Positions 16,200 through 56,842 of a stretch of 64,000 nt of DNA are shown here, piece by piece. The stretch covers positions 124,001 to 188,000 of the forward strand of contig JADNRY010000080.1 of the NCBI GenBank assembly GCA_015501585.1, given 5' to 3'. Each line of letters begins with the position of its first letter. Position 1 is the first letter of the stretch. The position numbers were made by a program, and so were the translations under genes. The notes beneath the pieces are model-generated. The model searched no databases. It saw only the letters and a list, made by a program, of their open reading frames with translations, and was not told the origin of the DNA. The stretch comes from Rhodocollybia butyracea. Its lineage: Eukaryota; Basidiomycota; Agaricomycetes; Agaricales; Omphalotaceae.

Positions 16200-18125
16200 C
16201 AGAAATTAATCATTCAACTGCATTCAAGTTAGACTCTTGCATAGATATTGCATGTGTGGCTGAACTTGATGCCAAGTGCTTGCAGCCGACAACAGTGAGC
16301 AAGGAACAGTAATTCATTTGTTGGTCAAAACTCGAACGAACGTTTCCGGCCATAGGAAAGGCTCCATCAAGTTCCAAGGGCAAATTATTATTTGTAAATG
16401 GTGCGCTCGAGAATGAATCTCGATTTGTCAAGTGAGTTTTTCACCGCGTATCCAACCGTATGAGTCCGATGTGTATCGGCGGGTATTTGGAAAGTGACAG
16501 CAATGAAAGACAAGGGAAACGAATGCGGAAAAGCATTAAGTACTAATGGCGGGGGAAAGAATGCCGGATGTGATGAAAACGCGTTGGCGTACAACCTTTC
16601 CGTGCGATACACCCAGGAACGACAACCTCAACTCTGAAGATCTGATTGTTGATGCAAACGGGACCGTCGACACTCACAGCGAGTGGAACCGCGACGACGT
16701 GGTGGTCAAAGGACAGGTACGATTAGATTAGGTAATGTACGTAAGTAGCGAAACTACCGAGCAACAGCATGTGCTCTAACACTGATCCTCGAGTACACAA
16801 ACACAGTCCTGCGCCTATGCTTGGTGCTCTGCGTTCTGTACCCAGATCTCGAGTAACCGGTGTCCTGTGCTGATACTGCCAGTGGCCAGCATGAAAAGTT
16901 TTCGAGGGAGAGGTCGTGAAAAGCGTCAGGTTTGCGCGTTCATTTGTCGGAAAAACGAACGATGAAGCTGGAAGAAACAACGTGTTTCAATGAAGGGATT
17001 TGTGAGGTCCGCGGACAGGAGTGCCAGCTATGATAAAATTACATCGGTCAGAGGACAACGAGCTTGGGGGTAGAAAAACACACACACACATAGTATACTA
17101 GTTCCAAACACTCTAACATTCAACTTTCTTTATATAAGTTTTCGCGGCGCTAATTCATACGCATTTCCGCATGTTCGATATATATGTTAAGTGTAGCACC
17201 GTGAACCTGAGCTCGATGGTTGTTACGACTCTGCATGGTGAGAGCTAAAAGAGGAGTCCGAATCCTCGGCGGAACTATTGTCTTTGTCCAAAGATTCATC
17301 GAAAGCCTTCTGTTTATGACAGATACAGCAAATCAACAAAAAAGAATCAGCTTCTTTATGGAGCTGAAGCCTGAAGCTGAAGGGAGGAACACATTACTTT
17401 TTGAAGACTCCTTCCCAGCACCCTCATTATCTACAATATCCTCTCTCCATAAAACACTTTCGCGGGGTTTCTTAAGTTTGTAGAAGCGGGCGTTCCACTG
17501 GGGCCAGGCTCTTTGGACTCGTCTTCGCTTAGAGGGGCTGTGGTAATCGTGAGAGTTCAAGAACTATTGCTGGATGCGAAGAGCAGTTTGGTTGTAGTGA
17601 CGTGGATGGCAGTTGAACGTTGATCGATGATCATGAAGCGTGGATGGCAGTTGATCGATAATCATGAAGCGTGGATGGCAGATCGATGATCATGATCATG
17701 AAGGTTGACCATGAATTTTAACTGAGCGCTTGTTTTTCCGGTCCGGTTCGTAATTCCGTTCCGTTTCAACCGCCAACCATGCATGCATCACACACTCAGA
17801 CTGGCCGAGTAGCTAGTTCCTTCTATCTGGATACATCAAGATCACAACGCCCCCATTATGGACTGACTGCGCTGACAGCACCACCACAAACTTGAAGACC
17901 CATTCAATGCCCATTCGATGAAGCCGACTTAGTACTGCTCCTACTACGCAATTGTAGCTGGTGAAGGAAAATTAATTAATTAACTCAACGTTTTCTAAAA
18001 CAAGGGCCTTCTCCTTCAAAGATCTTGACATGCAGTCCAGAACCCCAGTCTCTCTGAGGAGGCTGTAGCCGAGGTTGTCATGCTAGGTCCATCCTAGGAT
18101 GTATACTTAGCTGTATCACACAAAA
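16200..18125. repeat. Dispersed duplication block, copy B
   Basis: This is the copy of the 12.6-kb block that lies between the two membrane protein genes. Its left edge is a junction. The small-gene remnant starts (minus strand, MAGNVRSSFDQ near 16,360) but after about eleven codons runs into the 3' flank of the membrane protein gene. The conserved minus-strand Thr/Pro-rich segment lies near 17,340-17,580 and is broken by stops. The right part near 18,010-18,125 matches 30,260-30,380 of block C. Confidence 0.65.
17610..17705. repeat. Short minisatellite, about 31-bp unit
   Basis: About three imperfect units contain GATCATGAAGCGTGGATGGCAG alternating with TTGATCGATAATCATG-like sequence. It lies inside block B and is not expanded in blocks A or C. 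Confidence 0.7.
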
Positions 18126-18387
18126 AAAGATTTCACAAAGTCTTCTGATCATCACAACCTTGTTGTCCAGCTAAAATACTGCTAAGGATAGGATGTTGCA
18201 ACGGTGTCTACTTACTGCATCCAAGTCTACCAACTTCAATCAAGGCCCGCATCAAAGATTCGGAGGCTCGTGTACTAGCCAAGACTTGAGCCAAAAGTCT
18301 GGCCAAAAGCCATCTGCGGCGTACGCTGATGGTGTGCCCGACTCAGATGCCGGTCTATAAATACAGACTCCTTCTCAATCGAACACC

Positions 18388-19348
18388 ATGACTACTGCTG
18401 GCGACTCTCCATTCCCCTGCCCTCCAGCGTCGTCTTTTCAATCCCTGATGACAATGACCCGCGTATCACATATTCAGGTAGCTGGATTGCCAGTGGAAGC
18501 CCTGAGCTTGAATGTGAAGGAACGGCACATGGCGCTAATGGTACAAGCGTCACAGCTACTTTGAATTTTAACGGTGCGTACAGCAGGTTAGCTAGCTCAG
18601 ATTGCTGCTAATTAACATTGTTCATATCTTAGGCATTGGTGTTCAAGTGTTCGGAACAATTGGGGCTCCTGATGGATCTCCATCATCTACATACCAGGTT
18701 GACAATCTCCCAGCATCTACGTTCGTTTTCACCAATAACGGCCAACAAAACTATCGAATACCATTTTACGCCTCACCTCCGCTGAACGCGGGAAACCACA
18801 CACTTGTCATAACGTCTCTTGGGAGCAATAATGCTCGCATCTGGCTTGATTATATCTTATACTATCCTACTACCAATGAACTTGTCTCGAATTCTTCAGA
18901 AACATCTATGCCATCGACGTCCACCTCACCAGCATCTGTATCAAGTTCCGTGACAAGTATGACCCACGGGGCATCCACAAATACTGTTGCGATCGTGGGT
19001 GGGGTGCTTGGAAGCATGGTGGGAATGATCCTCGCTATAATACTCGCATATATCATACTTCGGTGGAGGCGTAAGCATGCCGACCACTGGAGTGTCACGG
19101 CTACACCATACGATGGACATGTTAATAAAACCAGTGAGCAAAGCATCCGCAATTGCATGCCCAGTCCTTAAATTATTTTAGCTATTCCGACTCATTCTGT
19201 TTTGGCCTCGACTGCGTCAATGCCTAGGACCTTGACCAATCCAATCTTTCCTGTAACCACTACCTCAGCGAGCCAACCCTATCCTACCTATGCTCAGAAG
19301 GCACCAACGATATCAGAATACCAGAGTCCACCCACATATGAGCCTTAG
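18388..19348 (+). pseudogene. Membrane protein copy 2, frameshifted by a 4-nt deletion
   Basis: This is a tandem copy of the gene at 15,060 with the same three-exon layout (introns 18574-18632 and 19134-19181) and nearly the same ectodomain, transmembrane helix and PPTYEP tail. Compared with copy 1, exon 1 lacks four bases just after the SSFQ codons (about 18,443-18,450). The frame is lost before the conserved DDNDPRITYS motif and no in-frame ATG can restore it. Exons 2 and 3 are open (18,633 onward), so decay is recent, or the copy makes a different short product. A TATA-like GTCTATAAATAC lies about 35 bp upstream. Flanking DNA on both sides is duplicated too. Confidence 0.75.
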
Positions 19349-20108
19349 TTGCATGAGCTCTACACTCAGTCGCACATGCCTGGACACTCACTTTGGTACT
19401 TAATCTGTTTATTTTTTAATTCTTTATTTGGACACGTAGGGACAGCTTTGACATATTGTAGGTACATCATATATGATTGCTCAAGTACCCGCGGGAGCCA
19501 ACGATCTTCCCAGAAATTAATTATTCAAATGCATTCAAAGATTCTTGCATAGATATCACATGTGTGGCTGAACTTGATGCCAACCGCTTGCAGAGAGGTT
19601 GTAGTCGTCGACAATAATTAGCAAGGAACAGGAACTTATTTATTGGTCAAAACTCGAACGAACATTCCCGGCCATAAGAAAGTCTCCATCAAGTTCCAAG
19701 GGCAAATTATTATTTGTGAAATTGTAAATGGCGCGCTTGAGAATGAATGTCGAATCTCGATTTGTCAAGTAAGTTCTCCACCGCATATCCAACCGTACAT
19801 CTGGTAAGTATGTGTCCGATGTGTATCCGTATTTGGCAAGCGACAGCAATGTTTAGAGAACATCTGCAAAACCTGGATTTTGATTGGAGCAGTTCCATTC
19901 AGTTGCTATCCAGTCGATAGCTTCAAACCGCTTCAAACACAAGGGATTACAGATTGATTACAAAATCAAGGAATGCCAATCAATGAGTAACTGTGGAGAT
20001 AACTTCTAATGGATAACTAATCTGTGCAGTTCCAACCTAGATGTGGGAGTTGACTCAGATCTTGAAGAGATCAGCACGTTGGTACATGCAGTGCTCTCTT
20101 CCCTCCAG
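19349..20108. other. 3' flank of copy 2 plus partial block (D); no gene
   Basis: 19,349-19,740 repeats the 3' flank of copy 1 (16,043-16,435), including the truncated small-gene start (MAGNVRSSFDQ on the minus strand near 19,680). Similarity to the dispersed block ends around 19,860. The remaining 250 bp has nothing recognisable. Confidence 0.6.
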
Positions 20109-20809
20109 TCAGAGCCGGGGGATGTCTTTCTGTGGTCTCGCGGCGTCAACGTAGGACATGTGATCTGCCTGATTCCTTTCAACCTCTCGGTATATTTTGG
20201 TCCAGTCTCTACACACAGTGTCATAGTTTCGAATTGATATCGCCTCCTCTCTGGTGGACTCGAGTCGTAGATTAGGGCGGCAGAGGATCGTCTGACGCAG
20301 GTAGTTCATGCAATGCCGAGTCAAGCCAGAGACAGACCCTCGTTCAGTGCTGGAAGTCGTAATGGGGGTGATGTATTCTAGCCGAATAATGTCAAGGCAC
20401 TTGAGCTGATGTAAAAGCGTCACGGTATGAGTCTCATTCTTCTGGGCGGATGAGGCAACATGAACTGTGTGTCCTGCTGGCGGTATCAGTGCAGACCACT
20501 CCTCGTTAGCCTGGTTCGAGGCTAGATCATAATGGGAGCCCGATATGATTCGCATAGCAACTAGATCATTGTCCCCAAATTCGACATGGAACGAGGACCC
20601 GGGTCCTGGAGAGATATACAGAGTGAATTTCAGAGCGGAGACCAGAAAATTTACATGCCTTCAGCGGTGAACACGTCAGGTATGATATGCAACGCTTTTT
20701 TCTTAGCGTGAAGAAGCGTCATGAACACAATCAGAAGGACAAGGAGAGAAGTCCCCATAGCAGCGAGCTTGGGCCATTGATATGACCTGTGAAGACGTTG
20801 TGAACTCAT
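20109..20809 (-). CDS. UstYa-like (DUF3328) protein with altered HxxHC motifs
   Basis: Two exons (20809-20659 and 20605-20109) encode about 215 residues. The intron starts with GCATGT and ends with AG, so it is a GC-AG intron; only this choice keeps the frame. The topology is type II: a short basic N-terminus (MSSQRLHRSYQWPKLAAMG), one transmembrane helix (TSLLVLLIVFMTLL), then a lumenal domain. UstYa-family oxidases carry two HxxHC motifs, and here both have lost one His: HQLKC (then LDIIR) and LTRHC (then MNYLRQ). A CRDW motif near the C-terminus is kept. The family crosslinks or oxidises fungal ribosomal peptides in the secretory pathway. The altered motifs suggest a non-catalytic partner or a changed active site. 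The gene sits in the same region as the repeat precursor at 27,476 and a second UstYa-like gene. Confidence 0.85.
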
Positions 20810-21484
20810 GAAGACTCGAGAGGTTACGAGGTAATGTGTCGATTTCAGGAAAATAGATTTTGGATAATGTAGGGAGATAAAAAAGGTCTGTCACACACAC
20901 TCCATGACCAAACCCCCAATTTTGCCATAAGTATCCATGGATAATTATCTTTGGCAGAGGTATGACTGCAAATGAACGATTCTCAATGAAAGCGCCCATT
21001 TTGATAACAGCGGGAGATGTTCATCATTTGATGTTAAGGAGTGAGTGTTAGAACTTAGTAAAAGGTGTTAAATTGTGTTAACGTAAAGGAACAGGCGGAG
21101 CTAGGAAGTTGACTCCGCATGATTCAATCCGTCATTTGACATCCCGTCCCTGTCAGAGTCCGATTGCATTCATTCAGAGTGATTAGCAAACGATAAACGC
21201 GATCTTTAACAGACACGGATGACTGGAATCAGTTGGGATCAGTTGGGATCCCGCTACCAGAGTCATAAATGGATGAATAGAAGGTAGATGTAAAGTCGGG
21301 GAATGCGGGGAGTTGAAACTTAAGTATGTTCATAATGGCATTTTTTACACGGAATTTTTGAATTAAACAAACGGCTCAGAAAGCATAATCATTGCTGATA
21401 GGTTTCCCGAGTAGTGAGCACATAGCACCCTTCCTCTTCCTTCGTTTACTAGTCACTACTTATTACTATTAAACAATTTTAATT
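20810..21484. other. Intergenic
   Basis: This is promoter side for the UstYa-like gene at 20,809. A short direct repeat, AATCAGTTGGGATCAGTTGGGATC, occurs near 21,230. I see no gene. Confidence 0.5.
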
Positions 21485-22757
21485 CTATACAGTTGTCTTG
21501 ATAGAGGTGGCAGAGATTCCTGGTAACTCCTTCATGGGACCATATATTGGGACCGACTCATCCTGTTGCCTTTCGGAGAAGAGAGACCGACCTGGATACT
21601 CCGACCTGGTAGCCGTAGACAGCACATTAGTATTGGTGTCATTGGCTGTCCTGCGGCTTGTTCCGAATCTCAACGTGGAAATATGTTCAGCGGCGGTATG
21701 TGAGTTCCAAGCGCGCTGATCTGCTACCCTCATTATAATAAGCATAGGAGCCAGGACCTATTTCATCAAAATTTCAGAGGAAGAAACAGTTTTCGATAAA
21801 ATCTCGCATACCTGAGCTTGAATTAAAACAGGCAGGAACAAATGGGATGCAGCACTGTTTAATGCATACGGGATAATGAAACATAATGATCCCACTGCAT
21901 ATACTGACGAGCTTTCTATCAGCATGGCCGCAATGCTCACATAGGGTAAGTTGCTAGCTGTCCCAAGGGATTTCTTTAGCCTATTCCGATAGTACATGAG
22001 GCGCAGTGAAATTGCCAATGTGACCATGATATTTAGGGACACAGAAAGGGAGTAGTAGGGTATTCCAAAATTGACGGTGACTTTTGTCCATAAAGTAGCA
22101 TTGGGTCGTGACGATTGGAACAGGAGGACGACTCCCAATGCTATATAACAGTTGAGGTTAAAATCTCAGAACGTTTGCGCGACTCACGTATCGTAGCCAC
22201 GTAGATCAAGGTTGGTAGAATAACAACATATAGATTTTGTCTAAATATGAGTAGACATCGATATACCTAGTTCACGCTTGTCAGTCAAACGAGAGGGAAC
22301 CGATACTTACTATAACCAATATACACACCAAAAAAGCGTCGGCAAACCATTCGGCAACTATGAAGGTGGAATTGGCAAAGACCACAAATACGCTGCTGTA
22401 CTGAGAGGCTGAGTAGGCTATAGGACCTCCAGGAACATCACGGTGATCAATGAACATCAACTCAAGAGTATGAAGGTCCATTCCGATGAAGATAGTTGCC
22501 AGGCCAAAGGTAATCCATGCGTATGCAATCAGTATCCAGTTTCGTTTCTTCCCCGAAAAGCGATGCGGAACCATGTACAGGAAATATGCAGCTTGCAAGA
22601 ACACAACGAACAAGATACCTTTGTAAAGAACATATGAGATATAGCTAAGACGATGGTACAAGGACATGCCATAAATGAAGGTTGACAGCACGATACCCAC
22701 AAGGGTACACCGCTCTTGATCCAGTGTGGAGTTTGGGAGGTTTGGACGGCCAGACAT
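21485..22757 (-). CDS. Seven-transmembrane protein of the basidiomycete multi-pass family
   Basis: At least four exons join in frame: 22757-22311, 22266-22188, 22140-21812 and 21757-21485. The product is about 375 residues with some seven hydrophobic helices. These include one with TLVGIVLSTFIYGMSLY at the N-terminus, ILFVVFLQAAYFLYMV, ITFGLATIFIG and AEWFADAFLVCILVI. YVVILPTLIYVATI and two more follow. The soluble C-tail is Ser/Thr/Arg-rich (ATRSEYPGRSLF) and ends with a KTTV. Agaricomycete genomes contain many such 7-TM proteins of unknown function, sometimes regarded as receptor-like. Its position between two UstYa-like genes may be chance, or it could be a transporter or sensor for the locus. 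No frame break was found. Confidence 0.75.
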
Positions 22758-23200
22758 TGCACAAGGAAAAAGGAGCCACTACTAGCAGCTCAAAATCGAC
22801 GGGCAGTCCTCCCGGTGACATGTTTTTATAGAACTAATACTAAGTTTCTATGTTGTATGACTGCATACTAAATTGCCTTCCGGGTTGCTTCCGGGATCTT
22901 ACTTCTAAGTTCTTGCATATCCAGGTTTTGAATACAAACAGATAATAGATGTATATATGCTCCCATGCTGCAGCAAACTTTCCTGGGGGTGACATCGTTC
23001 AAAAACGTCGGCGCATGACAGATTTGTACTATTATGTACATATGTCATAACGGCAACTTGAACTGTGTGACCAACTGATGAACTTAGGATCAATTGTATC
23101 GGTCCCGGACGCCCCAAGTCCCAAACCCCTGGGGCCACCATATGAGTAGGTGTGCAAATCGCCAAAGTCCTGGTTATCTCCCGTTGTCCATCGCTTCTAA
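22758..23200. other. Divergent intergenic region
   Basis: This is a 440-bp region between the 7-TM gene (-) and the hydrolase gene (+), likely a shared promoter region. No open frame with a domain was seen. Confidence 0.45.
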
Positions 23201-24164
23201 ATGCCTTCACCATTACTGTCAGTCACAGAAGGAAAGATCTGCTTCATAGTGGATGGCGAGAGCTTCGAGACCTACTACAAACTCGCAGGCGATCTCACTT
23301 CGCCAGGCCAAGTCCTATAGTCGTCCTACATGGCGGTCCAGGAGTTGCGCATAACTACATGTCTCCGCTCCTTGATTTAGGAAAAGGGAACCAGTCCGTG
23401 ATTCTTTACGACCAGCTAGGACAAGGAAATTCCACACACCTTCAATCCAAACCTATATCATTTTGGACAATCGACCTCTTCATAATCGAACTTGAGAACC
23501 TTTTAACTCATTTTTCTATCTCTGGATCTTTTCATCTTATCGGCCACTCATGGGGTGCTACACTCGCCTCCGAATTTGTTGTACGGAAACAGCCCCCCGG
23601 ACTGAAACGTCTGGTTCTTTCAAATGGTCTTGCCAGTGCGCGGCTTCGTAATGAAGCTATTGCCATCCGGCGAAAATCGCTTCCAGTAGATGTGCAGGAG
23701 GTTCTCAAAACACACGAAGAAGCGGGAACCACACAGAGCCCAGAATATAATGCGGCAATGATGGTGTTCCATCAAGCTTTTACCTGCAGAACAATACGTC
23801 CCTTGCCCGAGGACGTGCTCTTTTCGATAAAGCAGAACCAGTTAGATCCAACTGTGATCAATGCAATGCAAGTTACTTTAAATCATTTATGACCTGCTAA
23901 TCTTACTGTGTACTTTCTTGTAGGAGAAATGGCAGTGCCGGATTGAAAGATTCATGGGAAATCACTGACCGAGTTCATCTCATCCGTGTCCCAACTCTTG
24001 TCATAAATGGTGAATATGACTACATGATGGACTCGGTTTGCGCCCCATTCTGTAGTGGCATCCCCGACGTGAAATGGGTCAAATTCGCAGAATCTGGTCA
24101 CTTCCCTCATTGGGATGAACGTGAAAGGTACATGGAAACTGTGCTGGAGTTCCTGCAACAATGA
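23201..24164 (+). CDS. Prolyl aminopeptidase-like alpha/beta hydrolase (S33), N-terminal frame break
   Basis: The start at 23,201 gives MPSPLLSVTEGKICFIVDG...ETYYKLAGDL, the usual N-terminal strands of basidiomycete proline iminopeptidases. The core follows: HGGPG oxyanion motif, GHSWGA nucleophile elbow, catalytic Asp region VINGEYDYMMD and catalytic His region SGHFPHWDE. All triad positions are present. Near 23,306 one base appears to be missing between LAGDLTSPG and the strand PIVVLHGGPG; without it the first frame stops at once. The second intron (23868-23923) begins GCAAGT and ends AG, and keeps the frame (INAM to RNGSAGLKDSWEI). No signal peptide is seen. It could trim peptides made by this locus, but S33 hydrolases are common and its role is an inference. 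Confidence 0.7.
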
Positions 24165-24571
24165 TAGATTGAGTTTGGATGGACCGTTATATGTGTATTA
24201 TGCATACTTAGGGGTGTTTCAAGTGGCCCACTGGGGCTATACGCGATAAGTTGTGGATACCATCTTGATGATTTGTTCGACAAAAGAGTTGAATGGAGTG
24301 CTAGGTACCCATGGATTGATGTTCTGAAGCGTCTGTATTGACCGGCCGCATGCTTCACTTTTTTATATAGACACTCGATTGACTTCGGTAACCGATCAGC
24401 AGGGTGTCTTTGGAAAAAGTATCGTTTCTGAAAGTATCGCCGAGTATGAATGGTCATTCGAGCTGTTGGCTGGGCGCTCGAGAAAATGCAAAAAACGTTA
24501 TGCTGTAAAGTTGGTTCTCATCAAATGCTTTTAATCTCAAACAAGCGAGTCACAACTTCCATCATCCTGAG
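24165..24571. other. Intergenic
   Basis: 3' flank of the hydrolase gene and promoter of the next gene. Nothing else was recognised. Confidence 0.45.
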
Positions 24572-25514
24572 ATGTACAGATTGCTACGTACTTCAAGTCC
24601 CTACTCCAGTGATGAAGAGTGCGTCGAGCAGCCGTCACGCGTCCGTCGTCAACTGTGGTCAATGGCTGCCCCGATCTGCTTGTGTATTTGCCTGCTCCTT
24701 ACCGCTATCAATTTCGCACTGCTTCGCCAGTCTGGATTACAGAGAATCTCTACTATTACTCTTCGGAGAGAGGACTTGCACACTCTTCGACGGCCTTCTC
24801 AATTTATGTATTTCGACGAGATTCCCAGGCCCAATCCCCCCTCCCCCGGAAGTTCAACAATTTCCCTACTCTCATTGCTCAAGTTGACCAAATGCAGAAG
24901 GGAAAAGTATTTGAAACAGATGTCCGGCGACATATGGAAAGTTTTGGGACCATTTCTATTGAAGAATTCAAGGTTGTTATTGATGAATCTGTAAGTGTAT
25001 AAGTTGCAGAACTTGTCCCACATACTAACAGTTGAAGGACTCAGATATCGTCTGTCTTTCAGTTTCGAGCAATGGACTATGGCATGCGCAAATGTGAACT
25101 CCGTCTCTCCCTTCCACCTATACTAGATCAATCCGAGTCTACATTATTTGGAGACTCGTTCCCTCTCTCACTTTACCGACTCAACGCAACAGCTCCGCTG
25201 AATCCCAGGAAGCTTAACTATCTCACTCGTCCACAGCGCATGTTCAAACTTTCAGACCTTCCAGTGCAGAGTAGTCATGGAAATAAAAACGGCAGCATAC
25301 TTTGGACGCGAAGCTTCTCGTGTGGTGAAGAAGAGGTCATGACCTTCGAACTTGCCTGCTCTGGACTCGAAGAGACAGGATGCAGTACAATTGAATGGTG
25401 GCAAAATAAACAATCTTTTCAACCAGGTAAGAAGTTCTCTTTGAGCTAAACGGACTAATATACCGGTTTTGACTTTGCATAGCATTTTACATGACTCAAT
25501 ACTCGACGGTGTGA
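24572..25514 (+). CDS. Type II membrane protein of unknown function (basidiomycete family), one frame break
   Basis: Exons 24572-24990, 25045-25426 and 25483-25514 join with GT-AG introns. A cytosolic N-terminus with Ser/Arg clusters is followed by a transmembrane helix (APICLCICLLLTAINFALL). A lumenal domain begins LRRPSQFMYFDEI and continues with FNNFPTLIAQVDQ, FQFRAMDYGMRKCELR, LYRLNATAPLNPRKL and FELACSGLEETGCSTIEWWQ. It ends with FYMTQYSTV. This conserved layout matches a family of Agaricomycete proteins whose members I know only as hypothetical. Near 24,836-24,847 (C6-T-C5) one C seems to be missing, because the conserved sequence moves to another frame there. The gene is flanked by the peptidase-like gene and a UstYa-like gene. 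Its type II membrane topology resembles that of UstYa proteins, so it could be an extra tailoring or scaffold protein of the locus. Confidence 0.6.
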
Positions 25515-26006
25515 TTTTACAGTTTATCTGGAGGCCCAATTTGAAGGGAGGATATCTGATGTGTACTATCCTTTCTTGATCAAGTTTCGGGGCCATACTA
25601 TATGTAAATACTTGTTCCATCACTGCGCTGTCCTTAGAACTTTTATACTCTAGTCTCAGAGGACAGCGGAGGGCCAGATTAGGGTCAATAATAGTATATG
25701 AAACCTGTATACAGTATGAAACTTTTTAAGTGTGGAGGTTTGGAAAGTTGGAAGTTGGGAGAAGTACTTTTTCAACACTGTCTGAATCAAGTTGAAGCAC
25801 TCCACTTATCATGTAGGATCATCATTTTGTTATCTGAACAATAGCGACTCATACGGTGTCATACTCAAAGAGTAAATAAATAGCAGTAGATATTCAACTA
25901 GGTGATACAACTAGTACTTAGTTACTAGTAAGTACCTAAGTACTAGTACCTGTAAAATTATCATACTTAAGTGAAGAGTCAACTAAGTCAGTTTTGAACA
26001 TCAAGG
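25515..26006. other. Convergent 3' region
   Basis: Between two converging genes. It contains an AT-rich stretch near 25,910-25,955 with repeated (T)ACTAGTA(C/A) units. No gene is seen. Confidence 0.5.
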
Positions 26007-26704
26007 TTAAGTCCTTTTCCATTCTAACCACTGCCCGTAATTCTCCTCCATAGCATCGTATACCCTTTCCCAGTCATGGCAAGCTAGATCGTCGACAGGC
26101 CCACGGTATTTTTCGTGACTGTCGTAATCCTGTGACATAAAGTCTCCCTGCTCTGTTCCTTCTATAGCTTCACATAAAAATGTCTGTCTCAAATAATTGA
26201 GACAGTGCTTGATATGCCCGGATGTGCCCAGTGGATTGTCACGATCTAGCAAAGCCATCTGAATTCGACGAAGGCAATGTAACTGGTGTGAGACTGCGAC
26301 AACAAAGACACGATTCTCCGGGCCCATCCGTACACGGCCGACGTTGTCTGGCTTCGACACACTGATCTCCCATTCATCATCTGCAAGTTTGTACTCTGTG
26401 TCTAAGACTGAAGATGTATTGGGAAGGAGTGAGAAATGTGTAGAGTCATAAAGTGCCATTGATGCAGGTCCAACTTCATCGACAGGGAAGAACAAAGGGT
26501 AGTCTTCACCAATATACGAATACTCCCTTGCTGAGTTGTGGATAAATAAGGTGGTTGTTTCGATACACACATAAAAAATCAAGGAAACTTACATCCTAGG
26601 GATGACCTTGAAGAGAGAAAAGCTGGGATACTCAGCCATAGACTAGTGCCCACATTGATGAAAGCCACGGCCCAGAGACTGCAGGTAACAAGCTTGGATG
26701 GCAT
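26007..26704 (-). CDS. UstYa-like (DUF3328) oxidase with intact HxxHC motifs
   Basis: Two exons (26704-26593 and 26530-26007) join across a 62-bp GT-AG intron, giving about 211 residues. The start at 26,704 gives a short N-tail and a transmembrane helix (LWAVAFINVGTSLWLSI), a type II arrangement placing the rest in the ER/Golgi lumen. Both family motifs are complete: HQLHC (then LRRIQ) and HIKHC (then LNYLRQTFLC). A DDLACHDWERVY segment lies near the C-terminus. UstYa-family proteins oxidise and cyclise ribosomally made peptides in ustiloxin, phomopsin, asperipin and victorin pathways. Here the gene is divergently transcribed from the repeat precursor at 27,476, with about 770 bp between the start codons. 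An in-frame upstream ATG exists, but the chosen start fits the topology better. Confidence 0.9.
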
Positions 26705-27475
26705 GAGGTTTATCGAGTCCTGTTTCAATGCGTATTGTAGTAGAAACGTTATATTCGGCTCATCCCACAAGGTGAATTATACACAGGAAAGGAGGTGACA
26801 TTGTGAATCACAACGACATGTGCTGCGCTGATCCAAGTTCACGTACTTGGTACTTAGGTCCGAGGCATAATGCTGTAGACACCCTCTTTCGGTTTTGTCC
26901 TTCGATAAAGGCTCTGTAGAATCGAAGTTCATCCAAAAAATTCATCAACTTCTCCCGTCGTTTGAGTTGGTCTTTAAATCATACACCATACTGGTTCTCG
27001 TCATTTGTAGAAATCTGTCAAGTACGTTAGACAGATGGAGATGGAGATAAGAGTGCACATCGGGTAATTAAGAGAGATCATTTAATTCAGTTATCTATCG
27101 GGTCCGACGGGTCGTTGTTAAGTCCTGAGAGTTGTTTATTCGCGTACCCTCAAGTTGTATGTACAAATCTCGAGTTTTGATTCGTCAGGCTCGAGATTCC
27201 ACAAGTATGAATCAAAGATACTTGCCTAATATCCTAATATCGACCTGTTTTTGTGCTTATTGTGATGCTCCTATGTCCGCAGCGAGCGCTGTTATTCAAT
27301 TGATTCAACCCGGAAGCCCAAGTGGTTGACTTCTCGAGCCTCATCTGTCTTCGTGAGCTTGGAATCCTTGATCTGAACATGGATACCTGCATCGCTTATA
27401 CAGCATATAGTAGTATATAATATGGATATATGAGACCCAGATAGTATCCTACTCACAATAGTAGTTCCATAAACC
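26705..27475. promoter_or_regulatory. Divergent promoter region between UstYa-like gene and precursor
   Basis: The region lies between start codons at 26,704 (-) and 27,476 (+). On the precursor side a TATA-like TAGTATATAATATGGATATA sits at about 27,409-27,428, roughly 50-65 bp before the ATG. Shared control of the two genes is plausible from the layout. I could not identify a transcription-factor site. Confidence 0.5.
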
Positions 27476-28140
27476 ATGCGTGCTACCCTCTTTGCTAGTG
27501 CAATCATTGCGTCCGTGGCTATCTTTGGTAGCAAAGCTATAGCTATTCCTACTGGTAAACGCTTTCCTCTCATTTTCTTACCACCTACTGACTGACATCA
27601 TATTCTCTCTATATGATAGCCTCTCCAGTCGTTACTCCCGAAAACCGGGATGCTGAGGATGGCAGCGAGAGCCTGACCTCTCTCGTCGATTTTCGCCGCC
27701 GTAGCGCTGAGAATGATGAACGCATGACTTCTCTCGACGATTTTCGCCGCAGTGACGCTGAGGACGGTGAAACCCTGACCTCTCTCGTCGATTTTCGCCG
27801 CCGTAGCGCTGAGAATGATGAACGCCGGACTTCTCTAGACGATTTTCGTCGTCACAGCGTTGAGGACAGTGAAACTCTGACCTCTCTCGGTGATTTTCGC
27901 CGCAGCGACGCTGAAGACGGTGAAACTCTGACCTCTCTCTTTGATTTTCGCCGCAGCGACGCTGAGGATGGTGAAACCCTGACCTCTCTCGGTGATTTTC
28001 GCCGTCACAGCACTGAGGACAGTGAAACCCTGACCTCCCTCGGCGATTTTCGCCGTAGCAGCGCTGAGGATGGTCAACGCCTGACCTCCCTCGATGACTT
28101 TCGCCGTCACAACAGTGAGGAGGATCCACTGGTAACATAA
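27476..28140 (+). CDS. Kex2-processed repeat precursor, candidate dikaritin-type RiPP precursor
   Basis: Two exons (27476-27554 and 27620-28140) encode 199 residues. Exon 1 is a signal peptide (MRATLFASAIIASVAIFGSK). After a short leader (SPVVTPENR) come nine tandem 17-residue repeats, each ending in D-F-R-R, then a 10-residue tail. The repeat consensus is an acidic spacer (S-A-E-D-G-E-T) followed by L-T-S-L-x-D-F and the dibasic R-R, a Kex2-type site. The six residues T-S-L-x-D-F before each site are invariant except x (V, D, V, D, G, F, G, G, D). This is the architecture of UstA-like precursors: signal peptide, repeats, conserved core next to a Kex2 site. No Tyr is present; Phe is the only aromatic residue of the repeats. 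A UstYa-like oxidase gene is divergent next to it. Alternatives are a wall-associated repetitive or repellent-type secreted protein. Confidence 0.8.
27649..28107 (+). repeat. Nine 51-bp coding repeats in the precursor
   Basis: Each unit is exactly 51 bp (459 bp in all). Units 1-2 and 3-4 form a duplicated 102-bp pair (V-type then D-type), while units 5-9 are mainly G-type with one F-type. The segment coding for T-S-L-x-D-F-R-R is the best-conserved part. The period keeps long frames open on the opposite strand as well; these are shadows. Confidence 0.95.
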
Positions 28141-28319
28141 AACGAGTTGATGTTATTGTCATTCATGCTAAGATAAATCGCGTAGTTACTACAGACCGGA
28201 GTATAAAGATGAAAGATAACATACGTACGCGCATGCGCATGTAGGATATGTAGTAAATTTGACAGGGTTTGGACTGCGTCGACACGTTGTCAAGGTCTTC
28301 TAACATCTACTCAAACCAG

Positions 28320-30360
28320 AAAGATAGTCACGTCTGAATCTGTTGCAAAAAAAACACCTTGTATCCTCGCCTTCAACTCCACGGCTACATTGGTTAAGCT
28401 CTAGTGCAATATCCCCAAACAAACTCTCCGGGAAAACCATCGACCACCCCACCGGCAGCCTCAACTACAACCACTCCATGAGCCGTCCCAAGGACAGTAT
28501 TGCCAGCAGTATTTCCTGCCCCTCGTACGGTATCGAGGACACTACTGGTAAATTTGCTGACTCTAGGAAGCTCGAAGTTTTTCGCCGTCTCGAGAGCTGC
28601 ATATCTTACCCTGACGACGATAATGGGTCGGTTGACTTGTATTATCTCCTATATCATTGAAGACGGATGGACTCGGCATCCGTCGCCTAGAGCGATGTTG
28701 AGTAGAAGAAGAACGGACGTTCTCGACCATAAGAAAAGTCTCGATCGACTCCGGAGAGCGCATTATGGTTTGTAAATAGCGCTCGAGAATGAATGATAAT
28801 CGATTCATCAAGTGAGTTCTCCACCGCGTATCCGAACGTGCATCTGGCGTGTGTCCAATGTTAATGAGTATTCAGCAAGTGACAACAACGAAAGACAAGG
28901 GAAAAGCGGCATGAAGAGACGGAGACAGAATGCCGGATGTGAGAGATAGCGTGTTAGCGTACAATCCTTTCGTGTAATACAAGCACAACGACCTGAACCC
29001 TAAGAAGATCTGATCATCGTGTACACCCAAATGCATCCCTGCGCCTGTGCTCCGTGCTCTGTGTTTTTACCCAGATCTCGAGTAACCGGCGTTCTGTGCT
29101 AGTACTATAGCACCAGTGGCCAGCATAGGATGTTTCCGAGGGAGAGCGTTGGAGGATGTAAAAAACGTTGAGATTGCGGGTCCCTTTGGCAGAAAAACGA
29201 AGGAAGAAACGGTGAGTTCTGTGTTCCACGGTGATGAGAGCTAGCTATAATAAACTTACATCGGTCAAACTTGTGGGTAGAAAGACACGTATATAACATA
29301 CTAGTTCCAAATGCTCGAGAATTTTTAATATTTGACGTTCAACTCTCTTTATGTTTCCCTTTCGGCAGCGTTAGCTCATACGCGTTCTTGGAAGAATCCG
29401 CATATTCGAAAGTAAACCATGAGCCTGCAGCTGGGTTCGATGATTGTCACGACCCTGCGCATGCGCAGAATGAGAACTAAAAGAGGAGTCCAGATCCTTG
29501 TCGGAACTTCATCCGAAGATTCATCGAAAGCCTTCGGTTGATGATAGATACAGCAAACTGTCGAAATCAAGCAAAAAAAGAATTAGCTAGTTTATAGAGC
29601 TGAAGGAAGAAACATAGATATTACTTTTCGAAGACTTCTTCCCAGCACCCTCATTATCTACAACATCTTCTCTCCATAAAACACTTTTGCGAGGTTTCTT
29701 TGTAAAGGCGTGTTCCGCTGGGGCTGTGCTCTTTGGACTCGTCTTCGGTTGGAGGGGTTGTGGTGATCGTGAGAGTTCGAGAGCCATTGCTGGGCGCAGA
29801 TGCATCTGGGAAGCGGAGAGCAGTTCGGTTGTAGTTTGACTAAAGAGTGAAATTTTGAAACGTTGACTGAAACTTAATTGAGCGCTCACCCGGCGCTATC
29901 GTGTTTCCGGTCCGTAAGTCCGTTTCAAATGATCACGCACTTGGTCGACACAGCATGGCTGGTGGCTAGTTACTCGTATCTGGAGACATCAAGATTACAA
30001 CGCCCCATTGTGCACTGACCGCGCTGGCAACACCACTACAAACCTCGACGCTCATTCAATGAAGCAGACCTACGCGATTGTAGCTGGTGAAGGAAAGTTA
30101 GTAAATGCGAGGTAGTTTATACGACGTACGTCCGTTTGAGCTCAAACTCCCATACCCTAGTTCTGATAATCCCCATCGCAATAGGTCTTCTGGGACGAAC
30201 ATGATATCTCATTCGTTTTTCCGACGAATAAACCCACAAAACTTATTTAACGTTTGCTACAACAACGGCCTTCTCCCTCAAAAATCATCCCATGCAGCAC
30301 AGAACGCCGGTTTCTCGGGGGAGGCTGTAACCGTGGTTGTCGTCCTAGGTGTATTTTGTC
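28320..30360. repeat. Dispersed duplication block, copy C
   Basis: This is the longest of the three copies, containing every landmark described for copy A. The minus-strand Thr/Pro/Glu-rich second gene remnant ends in a conserved codon run for N-A-Y-E-L near 29,375, with its stop at 29,339. The right end (30,110-30,360) matches both the right part of A (13,990-14,085) and that of B (18,010-18,125). It begins directly downstream of the precursor gene. Confidence 0.7.
28330..28790 (-). pseudogene. Decayed copy of the 45-kb small gene (copy C)
   Basis: The minus-strand frame keeps a good N-terminal match to the intact gene: STQHRSRRRMPS...FNDIGDN...YRRQGK against STQHRSRRRTSR...TNDIGDN...YRRRGQK. 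The C-terminal region (near 28,350-28,400) also matches at DNA level. The Gly-Val repeat region is shortened and the frame is lost between the two ends. Confidence 0.7.
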
Positions 30361-32674
30361 CAGAGTGTACAACTGTATCACGCCCGAAAGTTTGCTCTTC
30401 CAAGATTACTATCACATCCGGCATTCGTTCTTTTCCCTGCCTCTGCCTCTTCCAAAGCATCAAGATCGTTCCGCTTCAAACATCGGAAGTTAAAGTACAG
30501 CTTGGACATCTACCGGTACCTTTAGTAACAGAACCAAAGTCGATGAAGCAAATAAAATCGTCACCGCTTTTAGCAATTAGGAAAGACACTATTGCATTTG
30601 CAAGCAACGCGGCGATTATGTGCGAATCTAAACTAACGGTCTGCCAGTAAAACACTGTGTACCTCTATTGACTATACTCACAGGTCCGTAGGTATGCGAC
30701 AGTAGAATCAAGTTCCGGAGGACCTTCAATCATTTCAATCCCCAAGTCGTTCCTTCAAAATACGATGCTAAGACTTTTCGGTTTGTATTCAATATCAAAA
30801 CTATGTTGAACGCATTTTCTGGCTCGCCATAGCAACTCATAGCAACTCCTCAAAGCACTATCTCTTCACATCCTACCGATGAGCGTCTAACAACATATCT
30901 TGTCAGTGTTGTCAGTGAGAAAAAGTTGACGAAAGTTGACGCTACAGAAAAAAACAAGCACAGCTCATCGAAGACGTGATCAAAAATATATTCGCAGGTT
31001 CTAAACGTATCCTCTTCGCTCTCAATAGTTCCCTCGAAAACCGAAAATCATCATGTTCTTCTGACAGGATCTACGGTTAACATGTATGCAATCACTTGCA
31101 GGACTCGTTCCCTGTGATTCTGTGGCGGAGAGTCTATCCACTCAATCAGTCGTCGAAGGTAACCATCTCTTGACTGACACCGCATCGGCTGATAAAGGTC
31201 TGCATGTTGCGCTCGCGCACTCGCCGAGACCAAGTATGTTTATTGCCGCCAGGGGTATCTAACAGAACAAATCTCCCGAGGTCTCGCCACCTTGATTTTA
31301 TCGCTACCTTGTCTTAGGATCCGGCGTTCAATTCTTGGACCAAATGCCGTGTGATAGACTCCTCCTTCCTTTCTTCCTTCCTTTCTTCCTCCCTTTCTTC
31401 CTTCCGTAGTCGTCTTTCTCCTGGAAGCTAACCCGAAATTCGACCACAGTTGAACGTGAATATATTCACAATTCATGAGTCTCGACCTTTTGGCTATCAT
31501 CTCGAGTCACGCATCAAGACTCCGTGCATATCGTCCTTGCTCGTGCATCCCATCATTGGTACAACATCTGCTTTCTTCCTATCTCTATCATCGCTTTCAT
31601 CTTATCTTGGGAGATACCAAAAAGGTGATAGATATCTCGAGGAAGGCAAGGATACAGCTACCGCAATCGGGAGTGGCTATAGCGAAGACCAAGTATCTCG
31701 TGTATCCCATGACTCCTCGCCTGACTCGTGTCCCAAATATATGCTCAAGGCGGCGTAAAAATGCCAATCGCTTCTATTTGGCTCAAGTAAGTTTATGACT
31801 AGTTTGCTGCGGTACTCCCGTGAATAGTGCCTTAGGCACCCATTCTGGTGAAATCCAGCTGTCCATCCAACGGACGTCTGGTCCCGATGCTTGAACATTG
31901 TAGCTACCGCTTTTCAGGACACCGCATCTCTACCCCAACGCGGGGAAGGAAGGAGTGGATTATTCGGCATGGTCCGAGGTCAAAATGCCGGGGCAGGGTA
32001 AGCTCTCATAGTGCGGCAAACTCCATCCTTGGTCAATCAGTTAACCGGTTACAATAATACGAAGCAGAATACGATACAGTGCACGCTCGTAAGTATGAGA
32101 GAACCCTCTTTGTTACAATCCATGCTTTACTTTAGTTCCTTTCAAGTGGCAGTTAGTTTCAGAGCTACAAAGTGCACTGTCCCCTTTCGCAATTCTTGTG
32201 AGTCGCTGTGATTCAGAATGGAGCCGGTATTTGATCTTCTATTTTCAGCGGGCTGTAAAGGTGTCTTGCGGTGAATGAAAGCCCATCCAGTGATACTGAA
32301 CATACCGATTGACAACGTCATGAAAGAGCACTTGATTACTCTTTACAGCGAATTCGGCCAGGCCGTCGATCTGATAGAAGGTATGAAACTTATGGATATT
32401 CACAGCGATATTCACAGCTCTTACGGGTCGTCTAAGGCCTTGTTCTTTTTAGGTACACAAAAGCTTATTTGTTCTTTTGTTCAAAGATCTGAGTATGCCT
32501 AGGCAACTTTTGTCTAGCCTTCTTTAACCGGGCTATGAGGGGCACTGTACGGTTACGGCTCAAGTACAATGGTGAATGGTGAACGGTCCTACTACCGAGT
32601 CATAGCTCTCACGCTCTGCTGTCTCAAGTCTTGCACTGCCGCCTCATTATAGCCGTCGGCTCACTAAGGATGAT
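30361..32674. other. No confident gene; one CTTC-type microsatellite
   Basis: Several 60-180 codon frames exist on both strands, but none shows domains or a linked splice pattern. The frame at 30,105-30,650 starts inside block C and reads into unique DNA, so it is probably chance. A pyrimidine microsatellite (TTCC/TTTC units) occupies about 31,361-31,408. The AT/GC balance and lack of frames suggest gene-poor or eroded DNA. Confidence 0.45.
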
Positions 32675-32761
32675 TTGAACCAGTGGAGTGGCAGTGCATT
32701 GCGGTGCTTTAAGTATTCTCATATAAGAGTCGAAGCCACTACTTCCGGATCTTATTTTCGC

Positions 32762-34631
32762 ATGAAGCATCACCTAATGAAAGGCCTTACTATACGTATC
32801 CCAAATGCTCCTCTTACAGCATTCGCAGATCGGGATATAAACATTACACCGCTACTGGAACACTCTTCTGTGAATCCTTCGGATTTCACCACTCCCATAA
32901 CTCCTGTATCGGCCTTTGGAGAAGAGGTGAAAAGTGTTGATGGGCTGGTCCGCTCTAGGCTACAGGTATCCAGGAGGAATATAAACTCGCAGGCCCGAGT
33001 TTCTCCCAAAACTTCGTCCTTGCATTCACCTCATATTCGCACCCCAGTTGACACTCTTCAAACTCCTCGGGCCCTTCGAGCTCCCTTGGGTGCTAGTCCA
33101 CTCTCAGCCAGTGGCTGGCGCCGCTTGCCTGTTGAGATTCTGACCGAGATATTTACTCACTGTTTACCCTCAAAGCACATACCGCCATCCTCTCTGATTA
33201 TGGAAGCACCTCTTGTGCTCCTATCTGTCTGCCGAGAGTGGCGGACGGTTGCGCTTAGCACACCACGACTATGGTGCTCACCTCGTATTCGTCTTCCATC
33301 CTCCGGTCACTTGACCGATGCAAAACTGAAGCCGCACCACACTGGCATAGAACAATGGCTGGACCGGTCCGGGTCGCTGCCCTTGTTCTTATCACTCATG
33401 ATTCATCGTGGGCCACAGTCAGAATCAGCGGAGCTCGGAAACGATACTCTTGAACTCATTGCGTCGTTGATGCAATGTAGTCATCGTCTTGTAGACCTTA
33501 CAATTTTTTTCCTCGTCGACAATGTATGACTTTTTACAGTCCACAGTCATCTTAGAGACAGAATTTCCTGCGCTCAAGTCGATGACCGTCGTGCACTCAA
33601 CTGCTGGGAGGCACCCCACGGAAGACAGCACACTTTCTAGCCTCATGTCAATCTCCAAAAAGTCGATGCCGAAACTTGAGAAATTCTGTCTCTGTGGTTT
33701 TAATTCGGCAGTTATTGGACATCTCACTCGCACTCATAGCTGGTCTCCTAACATTAAACACCTTGTATTATGTTCTTCCTCCGGCATGTCGGTACTTGAT
33801 GGTTGGCGGCTTGGACCTGCAGACATACTGTCCATATTGTCGCAAAATCCACAGCTTTCCTCGTTCCATGCAGCGGTGACTCTCAACAGCGACTATCGTA
33901 TTTATGGTTTATTGCAGCTCTCCGACTCCGTGTTCAATCTCCCTTCTCTTCTACACCTTAATCTCCAGTTCATGGTTCCCCCAAATGACGCTTTGCATGC
34001 CCATCCTGACCCCGACATGCATCATCTATTCAAATGCATATCATGTCCTTCCCTGAAGACTCTCTCGGTTGCTTACGCCGGAGTTCCGTCTCTAACTGAG
34101 GTTCCATTCCTCCCGTGGCTATCGGATCCCAAAGTATCCCGAATTGACAAGCTGCGGGAACTGAACCTCAGTATATCCATGACCCCGACAGCTCTAACGG
34201 AGTGCCTCATTCTCCTTCCTTCCAGTCTTCGTGTTCTCGAAATTGTCGATCTCGGTCAAATCGATGTCGATAGCACAGGCACAATGTTTGGACATACAGT
34301 GCGGGATTCCCATTTAGACCTCTTAACGCGAAACGACTCCCAGGACAATTCTCACCTCGATGTTTGTCCCAATCTGAAAATATTCCGGCTCATTATCTCC
34401 AGGTTTCTGGTATCAACTTGTTTGACTCCTCGTGCTTCCGATTCCGATGTGTCTGAAACTCAACTGAAACGGAAGAAGAACATGGGTGTATCTCGCGCAG
34501 TCCTACAGAGGTTTATCGACAGTAGGACTCAAAGCACAGGTAATGGTACTCGAAAGGCGCGGACAATACGGGAGTGTGAAGTGTTGCTATCTCCAACTTC
34601 ATCTACGTATTATAAGCTTGATTCTCCGTAG
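32762..34631 (+). CDS. F-box protein with LRR-like C-terminal part, one frame break
   Basis: The start at 32,762 precedes a 110-residue Ser/Pro-rich N-terminus. The F-box follows (WRRLPVEILTEIFTHCLP...VCREWRTVALSTPRLW) and then a long C-terminal part with leucine-rich strands (FPALKSMTV, LRELNLSIS, LRVLEIVDL). The total is near 620 residues. F-box proteins of this type are SCF ubiquitin-ligase adaptors and are greatly expanded in Agaricomycetes. The first frame ends just after the run of seven T at 33,504-33,510 and the second begins there. Removing one T joins them into a continuous protein with no need for an intron. So this is one gene with a homopolymer frameshift, real or artefactual. 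Confidence 0.75.
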
Positions 34632-34735
34632 TCCTCGGATAAATACTCTATTTGTTTGTTATAGTAGGATTAGCAGGACTACAGCTGCTGTACATGTTGT
34701 GCTCTACTTTAGATCATGAAGAGAGGAAATTGAAT

Positions 34736-34823
34736 CAAAGTGAGGGACTTGAACCCACTCCATCTCACGATGAGGAAGTCGTCAGACTTGAGTCACACCC
34801 CATAACCGCATCGCCCCGCTTGC
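34736..34823 (-). tRNA. tRNA-Leu-like element, probably degenerate
   Basis: On the minus strand a B-box GGTTCAAGTCC sits in a near-complete T arm. It is preceded by a long variable arm with ATCGTGAGAT, a CTCAAG resembling the Leu(CAA) anticodon loop, and an A-box-like GGCGATGCGGTTATGG. The spacing matches eukaryotic tRNA-Leu. However, I can pair only about three of seven acceptor-stem bases, the anticodon stem does not pair well, and the T stem has a mismatch. No T-run terminator follows. It is therefore likely a decayed copy. Confidence 0.3.
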
Positions 34824-35157
34824 CATGTTATGGATAGCCTCCTGTAGTAAAGTCCGAATACACGCATTGGGAACGTGGGCTTGGAAGGTATCGGTCCACC
34901 ACAGTTCATGGCTGCCACATACTTAGGTCTTGCTGGCTCTTGCACTAGTCTGGTTCATGCTTTTTCCTGGCTCTTGATGCAGCTTATCCTGCAACAAGCT
35001 CCGGGCCTGCCCTTAAGTGCAGTCCAGGACCTGTCTTAAATCAAGGCGAGCCAATGCAAACGATCATGAGCAAGTTCAAGAGCGATTAGTGATACCAGCT
35101 TGACACTGCAGATGATATGATGCTGACGCTACAGTATTTATTCGTATTTCTCGACTA

Positions 35158-37558
<2,401 letters not shown>

Positions 37559-55772: not shown

Positions 55773-56842
<1,070 letters not shown>

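What the first reader, a model, noticed from the sequence alone, without database searches (positions are those of the whole stretch)
20109..28140. Candidate dikaritin-type RiPP locus in a basidiomycete
Within 8 kb lie a secreted precursor with nine Kex2-bounded repeats, two UstYa-like (DUF3328) type II membrane proteins, a prolyl-aminopeptidase-like hydrolase, an unknown type II membrane protein and a 7-TM protein. Seen directly: signal peptide, repeats ending D-F-R-R, HxxHC motifs. Established: in ustiloxin, phomopsin, asperipin and victorin pathways of ascomycetes, UstYa-family oxidases act on cores cut out of such precursors by Kex2-type proteases. Inference: this is a basidiomycete version with a Tyr-free core T-S-L-x-D-F.
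Basis: partly seen in the sequence, partly recalled or inferred. Interest (0 to 1): 0.92.

Follow-up and report, generated by a model that had tools for sequence, protein, structure and literature searches.

The report
Mushroom repeat-peptide locus with UstYa enzymes
A woodland mushroom carries a gene for a secreted protein that looks built to be cut into nine near-identical small peptides, beside two oxidase-like genes of a kind that modify such peptides in moulds; the pairing recurs at other places in its genome, and at three places a receptor-like membrane protein sits next to the oxidase-like gene.

Summary
Observation confirmed. The window is from Rhodocollybia butyracea. The 8-kb locus holds a signal-peptide precursor with nine 17-residue units ending TSLxDF-RR, two UstYa (PF11807) proteins, an alpha/beta hydrolase, a type II membrane protein and a 7-TM protein. 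Among repeats the core is constrained (pN 0, pS 0.35), the spacer loose (pN/pS 0.69).

Basidiomycete precursor-UstYa pairs are already in print (103 of 1680; PMC7329392), so this is a variant of a known kind. Against: UstYa-1 lacks two motif histidines, two flanking genes are frame-broken, and product, expression and synteny in other species are untested.

The parts
27476..28140 (+). Repeat precursor (KEP) gene: exon 1 27476-27554 (signal peptide MRATLFASAIIASVAIFGSKAIA...), intron 27555-27619 (GT-AG), exon 2 27620-28140
   Evidence: sequence; repeats; matches in this genome only here and on haplotig C921
27649..28107 (+). Nine 17-aa units, each ending T-S-L-x-D-F-R-R (x = V,D,V,D,G,F,G,G,D)
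   Evidence: exact 17-aa spacing; core without x pN 0.0, pS 0.351; first nine codons pN/pS 0.693
20109..20809 (-). UstYa-1 (U1), 215 aa, type II membrane protein with degenerate motifs HQLKC and LTRHC; intron 20606-20658 with a GC donor in my model
   Evidence: PF11807, 43.8 bits; haplotypes differ by 1 synonymous and 0 nonsynonymous codons
26007..26704 (-). UstYa-2 (U2), 211 aa, type II membrane protein with two intact HxxHC motifs (HQLHC, HIKHC)
   Evidence: 43 bits; P0001, 100% identical over 211 aa; haplotypes 11 synonymous, 3 nonsynonymous codons
21485..22757 (-). 7-TM protein; paralogs beside UstYa genes on C517 and C827
   Evidence: (P0025)
23201..24164 (+). Alpha/beta hydrolase of prolyl-aminopeptidase look (HGGPG); reading frame interrupted once in this copy
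   Evidence: one paralog at C670:12075, 44% identity
24572..25514 (+). Type II membrane protein 'D' of unknown family; frame changes near 24.85 kb without a clear intron
   Evidence: paralog on C827; weaker hit on C427

Best explanation
This is one of six candidate dikaritin-type RiPP loci in Rhodocollybia butyracea. The precursor enters the secretory pathway, Kex2 cuts it after each R-R, and each unit yields a 14-15-mer with an acidic, variable N-terminal half and a conserved T-S-L-x-D-F end. The membrane-anchored UstYa-2, probably with the motif-poor UstYa-1 as partner, oxidises the core in the secretory lumen; the likeliest product is a side-chain ring between Leu and the C-terminal Phe, as victorin joins an internal Leu to its C-terminal Phe. 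A further peptidase removes the acidic half and the peptide is secreted. Shown: gene content, nine constrained repeats, UstYa family membership, recurrence of precursor-UstYa pairs in this genome. Inferred: cutting, trimming, oxidation, ring, secretion.
For: PF11807 over cut-off in both proteins. Core constrained, spacer loose. Between haplotypes the precursor codons compared show 4 synonymous and 2 nonsynonymous changes, the latter outside TSLxDF. Repeat precursors near 6 of 8 UstYa loci: window; C517 (SPDIFAKKAWEA-EKR); C427/C509 (KR-DRKGYDIT); C431 (KR-SSDVDDAFPGWN); C1160/C305 (GPSDQTWN-KR); C14 (GPDTFWG, GPDSWWG). Fixed scan: 5 of 8 loci against 1 of 11 comparison stretches. The repeated units at all six loci contain Phe, Tyr or Trp. 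A Tyr-free core is no bar: 65.6% of repeated sequences in KEPs with DUF3328 neighbours hold Tyr, so about a third do not (PMC7329392, passages), and victorin is closed between Phe and Leu (PMC9233826, passages).
Against: UstYa-1 lacks two of the six motif His/Cys residues. Two flanking genes are frame-broken in the window. No tyrosinase on these contigs (two matches, C805 and C179), though asperipin is recalled to need none. The KEP peptides detected in four agarics in PMC9769878 are linear or minimally modified, and PMC7329392 suggests that cyclisation might hardly occur in Basidiomycota. The precursor gave no match in the protein search. Two of 8 UstYa loci (C223, C827) showed no precursor. 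No expression, peptide or other-species synteny data.
Confidence: 0.68

Rival explanations
1. Peptide-signalling locus: the modified peptide is a hormone or pheromone-like signal, and the neighbouring 7-TM protein is its receptor, so that ligand, modifying enzymes and receptor are inherited together. Compatible with the best explanation; it differs in what the peptide is for.
Confidence: 0.2
2. Linear KEP peptides: Kex2 releases linear acidic peptides and the UstYa neighbours act on another substrate or no longer act.
For: Linear or minimally modified KEP peptides were the ones found in C. cinerea, L. edodes and two Pleurotus species (PMC9769878: abstract, first third of Results, passages). 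UstYa-1 motifs are degenerate.
Against: Precursor-UstYa pairing at 6 of 8 UstYa loci; UstYa-2 has both motifs and 11 synonymous to 3 nonsynonymous codon differences between haplotypes.
Confidence: 0.2
3. Decaying cluster: the frame breaks in hydrolase and type II gene are real and the pathway is dying.
For: Frame breaks in the window; on C921 the precursor itself is broken by one-base differences.
Against: One-base differences are scattered over the compared stretch, as assembly errors would be; the two contigs break different genes (hydrolase in the window, precursor on C921); UstYa-1 differs by one silent change only.
Confidence: 0.1
4. Wall-bound or fibril-forming repeat protein of Rep1 kind.
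For: Secreted repeats with dibasic sites also occur in Rep1 of U. maydis, whose peptides form fibrils (PMC9769878, introduction passage).
Against: UstYa neighbours; short charged units, unlike the amphipathic Rep1 peptides (recalled).
Confidence: 0.04

Closest known systems
Dikaritins (ustiloxin, phomopsin, asperipin, victorin) of Ascomycota
   Same: Signal peptide, dibasic-bounded repeats, UstYa-family genes adjacent; C-terminal Phe and internal Leu in the core as in victorin's ring (PMC9233826, passages). The sibling core on C427 (GYDIT) has the Tyr-x-Ile of ustiloxin/phomopsin (EDYXI, PMC6339444, passage).
   Different: Basidiomycete; Tyr-free core; one UstYa with degenerate motifs; 7-TM and type II membrane neighbours; no tyrosinase match on these contigs; sibling precursors have introns between repeats.
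Kex2-processed repeat proteins (KEPs) of Agaricomycetes
   Same: Same precursor design; 103 of 1680 basidiomycete KEPs have DUF3328 within 15 genes (PMC7329392, passages).
   Different: Those detected as peptides in PMC9769878 are linear or minimally modified; several carry STE13 motifs, which most window units lack.
Alpha-factor/Ste2 pheromone system of Ascomycota
   Same: Kex2-cut repeat precursor; the linked 7-TM protein is nearest in fold to Ste2.
   Different: No STE13 dipeptide in 6 of 8 units; no sequence relation to STE2 seen; STE2 receptors are reported only from Ascomycota (PMC12842992, passages).

Membership tests
Dikaritin RiPP | Secreted precursor with repeats bounded by Kex2 sites | tested here: met
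   signal peptide judged by eye, no SignalP run
Dikaritin RiPP | DUF3328/UstYa gene beside the precursor | tested here: met
   both over Pfam cut-off; UstYa-2 lies 0.77 kb from the precursor
Dikaritin RiPP | Two HXXHC motifs in the UstYa protein (PMC12048977, passages) | tested here: inconclusive
   UstYa-2 has both; UstYa-1 has HQLKC and LTRHC
Dikaritin RiPP | Oxidised, cyclic product | not testable with these tools
   needs LC-MS
Dikaritin RiPP | Kex2 cutting in vivo | not testable with these tools
   needs peptidomics or a kex2 mutant
Alpha-type pheromone precursor (STE13-type KEP) | XA/XP dipeptide directly after the dibasic site in the repeats | tested here: not met
   2 of 8 units released between dibasic sites begin with SA, the other 6 with neither XA nor XP
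STE2 receptor (7-TM neighbour) | Pfam STE2 match | tested here: not met
   0 of 9 family members at E up to 1
STE2 receptor (7-TM neighbour) | Class D GPCR fold | tested here: inconclusive
DUF6534 7-TM family (proposed new GPCR class, PMC12842992) | Pfam DUF6534 match | tested here: not met
   no match in 9 members; of 48 listed matches (a lower bound) none on the contigs of the seven family places

The most novel reading that the evidence does not exclude
Agaricomycetes carry compact cassettes in which a Kex2-cut repeat precursor, UstYa-type modifying oxidases and a Ste2-fold 7-TM receptor are linked: an alpha-factor-like signalling system whose ligand is a modified, possibly cyclic peptide, in a phylum reported to lack STE2 receptors. 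Introns between repeats would have kept many such precursors out of gene-model surveys.
Probability: 0.17. Interest if true: 0.88.

Novelty: new variant of a known kind. Interest (0 to 1): 0.62.

Why it matters
No basidiomycete dikaritin product turned up in the papers listed, and PMC7329392 left open whether basidiomycete KEPs are cyclised at all. This genome gives six candidate precursor-UstYa pairs with predicted cores, one with the Tyr-x-Ile signature, so the question can be put to LC-MS directly. Introns between repeats suggest why surveys on annotated proteins may undercount. The recurrent 7-TM neighbour gives the question of which receptors sense KEP peptides in Basidiomycota, raised in PMC6339444, a concrete candidate.

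Tried and rejected
Precursor search in 5.8 billion proteins: nothing at E up to 10, not even itself, so it is probably not annotated there, and the search (capped at the 7996 best-sharing candidates) says little about relatives. A precursor at C827 or C223: none found in the stretches held; C827:841833 has a signal-like start but no repeats. UstYa fold: model too weak (pLDDT 58.5), Foldseek gave 12 matches at E 5.6 or worse; PDB sequence search empty. STE2 family in the genome: nothing, but no control genome rang either, so no conclusion. Prolyl aminopeptidase acting on the core: the repeat units hold no Pro, so unlikely. DUF6534 membership of the 7-TM: rejected. Frames with several TM stretches at C223 near UstYa were not hit by the profile of the window 7-TM family and are not counted.

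Limits of the counts. The scan settings were fixed after the window precursor was known. Of the 11 comparison stretches, 4 are arbitrary picks (L037-L040), 4 surround 7-TM paralogs (L033-L036), 1 lies between the two UstYa genes of C827 (L028) and 2 are the rest of the window. The one positive (L033) is a repeat frame that looks like a TPR array by eye; no family scan was run on it. C14 was found by a signal-peptide scan and by eye, which I did not apply to the comparison stretches, so '6 of 8 against 0 of 11' is lopsided and the p-values (0.024 automatic, 0.001 curated) are descriptive. A looser scan also gave pairs of similar sites at C506 and C605. Pfam UstYa matches are a lower bound. Spliced models rest on GT-AG rules and a reward for the repeat unit, not on transcripts; three inner units of C427, the third of C1160 and the last of C14 are uncertain; a first version with a stricter acceptor rule gave poorer models.
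Full report
What is there. The window lies on contig C1161 of a 95.6-Mb, 1381-contig assembly. UstYa-2 is identical over 211 aa to BDP27DRAFT_1267990 of Rhodocollybia butyracea, an Agaricales mushroom of the Omphalotaceae. In order the locus holds UstYa-1 (-), 7-TM (-), hydrolase (+), type II membrane protein D (+), UstYa-2 (-), precursor (+). Both UstYa proteins pass Pfam's cut-off. The precursor has nine units of exactly 17 aa ending TSLxDFRR.

More than chance. Among the nine units the seven residues TSL-DF-RR never change although their silent sites do (pS 0.351, pN 0.0), whereas the first nine codons of the unit are far looser (pN/pS 0.693). A second haplotype contig, C921, covers 17714-37365 at 98-99.5% identity over all but the last 89 bases, which are identical. 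Between the two, the precursor codons compared differ by four silent and two replacement changes, the latter outside the core; UstYa-1 by one silent, UstYa-2 by eleven silent and three replacement codons. One-base differences break the precursor on C921 and the hydrolase in the window; such differences are scattered over the whole stretch and look like assembly errors, but I cannot tell. D changes frame in both copies.

The same genome repeats the pattern. Pfam UstYa gives 18 exon-level matches (a lower bound), which reduce to 8 loci when haplotype pairs are merged (window/C921; C427/C509 at 96.5% over 8.5 kb and C1160/C305 at 99.5%). An intron-tolerant scan for similar stretches beside dibasic sites, repeated with fixed settings, gives groups of four or more sites at 5 of 8 loci and at 1 of 11 comparison stretches, the latter a repeat frame that looks like a TPR array. 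A sixth precursor, at C14, was found through a signal-peptide scan and by eye; that inspection was not made on the comparison stretches. All six begin with a signal-like peptide. Spliced models put introns between repeats at C431 (unit KRSSDVDDAFPGWN), C427/C509 (GGDVEKRDRKGYDIT, 13 units in each haplotype, some run together in the model), C517 (EKRDNSPISSIPALVSPDIFAKKAWEA), C1160 (GADFDEAAGPSDQTWNKR) and, between its first units, C14; the window precursor has uninterrupted repeats. C223 and C827 showed none. Introns and exons are not mentioned in the text of PMC7329392 or PMC6339444. PMC9769878 has one mention, cDNA used to get intron-less KEP sequences of C. cinerea, and PMC9233826 says that intron density makes basidiomycete RiPP clusters hard to identify without transcripts. 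Searches listed no paper that I recognised as describing introns between such repeats; most listed papers were not opened.

Neighbours. The 7-TM family has seven places in the genome, found alike from two queries: window, C517, C827, C1349, C883, C506, C605. The first three lie within about 1 kb of a UstYa gene (675 bp in the window; for the others); the other four showed no UstYa-like match and no precursor in 9.5-9.7 kb. Leaving out the window, two of six is improbable under uniform placement (2e-6 to 8e-6), with the caveat that C827 also has relatives of UstYa-1, UstYa-2 and D and may be an old copy of this cluster, spread over about 26 kb. D has a relative at C827 and a weak one at C427 (E 0.013), both on UstYa stretches. 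UstYa-1 and its C827 relative share the loss of the second His of motif 1 and the first His of motif 2, while the seven other UstYa genes seen (C517, C427, C431, C1160, C14, C223, C827a) and UstYa-2 keep both motifs: a canonical plus a motif-poor UstYa at two loci suggests a working pair (inference).

How it most likely works. Signal peptide, Kex2 cutting at R-R, UstYa oxidation, trimming, secretion, as in ascomycete dikaritins. The conserved Leu and C-terminal Phe resemble victorin, closed between an internal Leu and the C-terminal Phe (PMC9233826, passages). Each step after gene content is inferred. Kex2 alone leaves the acidic half on, so a further peptidase is needed; the hydrolase is a weak candidate since the units hold no Pro.

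Known or new. Basidiomycete KEP-DUF3328 pairs were counted in 2020 (PMC7329392, passages): 103 of 1680, with the remark that cyclisation might hardly occur in Basidiomycota. Pleurotus UstYa-like genes were linked to dikaritins in 2022 (PMC8893723, passages). KEP peptides shown in mushrooms are linear or minimally modified (PMC9769878: abstract, first third of Results, passages). This is therefore a new variant of a known kind; what I did not meet in those papers are six such pairs laid out in one mushroom, introns between repeats, a UstYa pair with one degenerate member, and the recurrent 7-TM neighbour.

Noticed in passing
C427:8294-6830 and C509:8141-6676: Intron-split precursor with 13 units of the GGDVEKRDRKGYDIT kind beside a UstYa gene; the core Tyr-Asp-Ile matches the Tyr-x-Ile of ustiloxin and phomopsin, and the two haplotypes differ in the make-up of the units.
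   Followed up: partly
window 56648-56842: A run of 195 T in a row, possibly an assembly artefact.
   Followed up: no
window 4927-7355 and 38508-40925: NPHP3/NACHT piece and ankyrin repeats, and a large TPR-repeat frame, of the NLR-like kind recalled as common in mushrooms.
   Followed up: no
L015 (C223), contig positions 428.6-430.1 kb: Frames with several transmembrane stretches next to another UstYa gene; not matched by the profile of the window 7-TM family.
   Followed up: partly
C827:816.5-842.4 kb: Relatives of 7-TM, UstYa-2, D and UstYa-1 lie in two groups about 20 kb apart with no precursor found: possibly a split copy of the window cluster.
   Followed up: partly
window 23201-24164 and 24572-25514: Frame interruptions in the hydrolase (window copy) and type II gene (both copies); errors or decay not decided.
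   Followed up: partly
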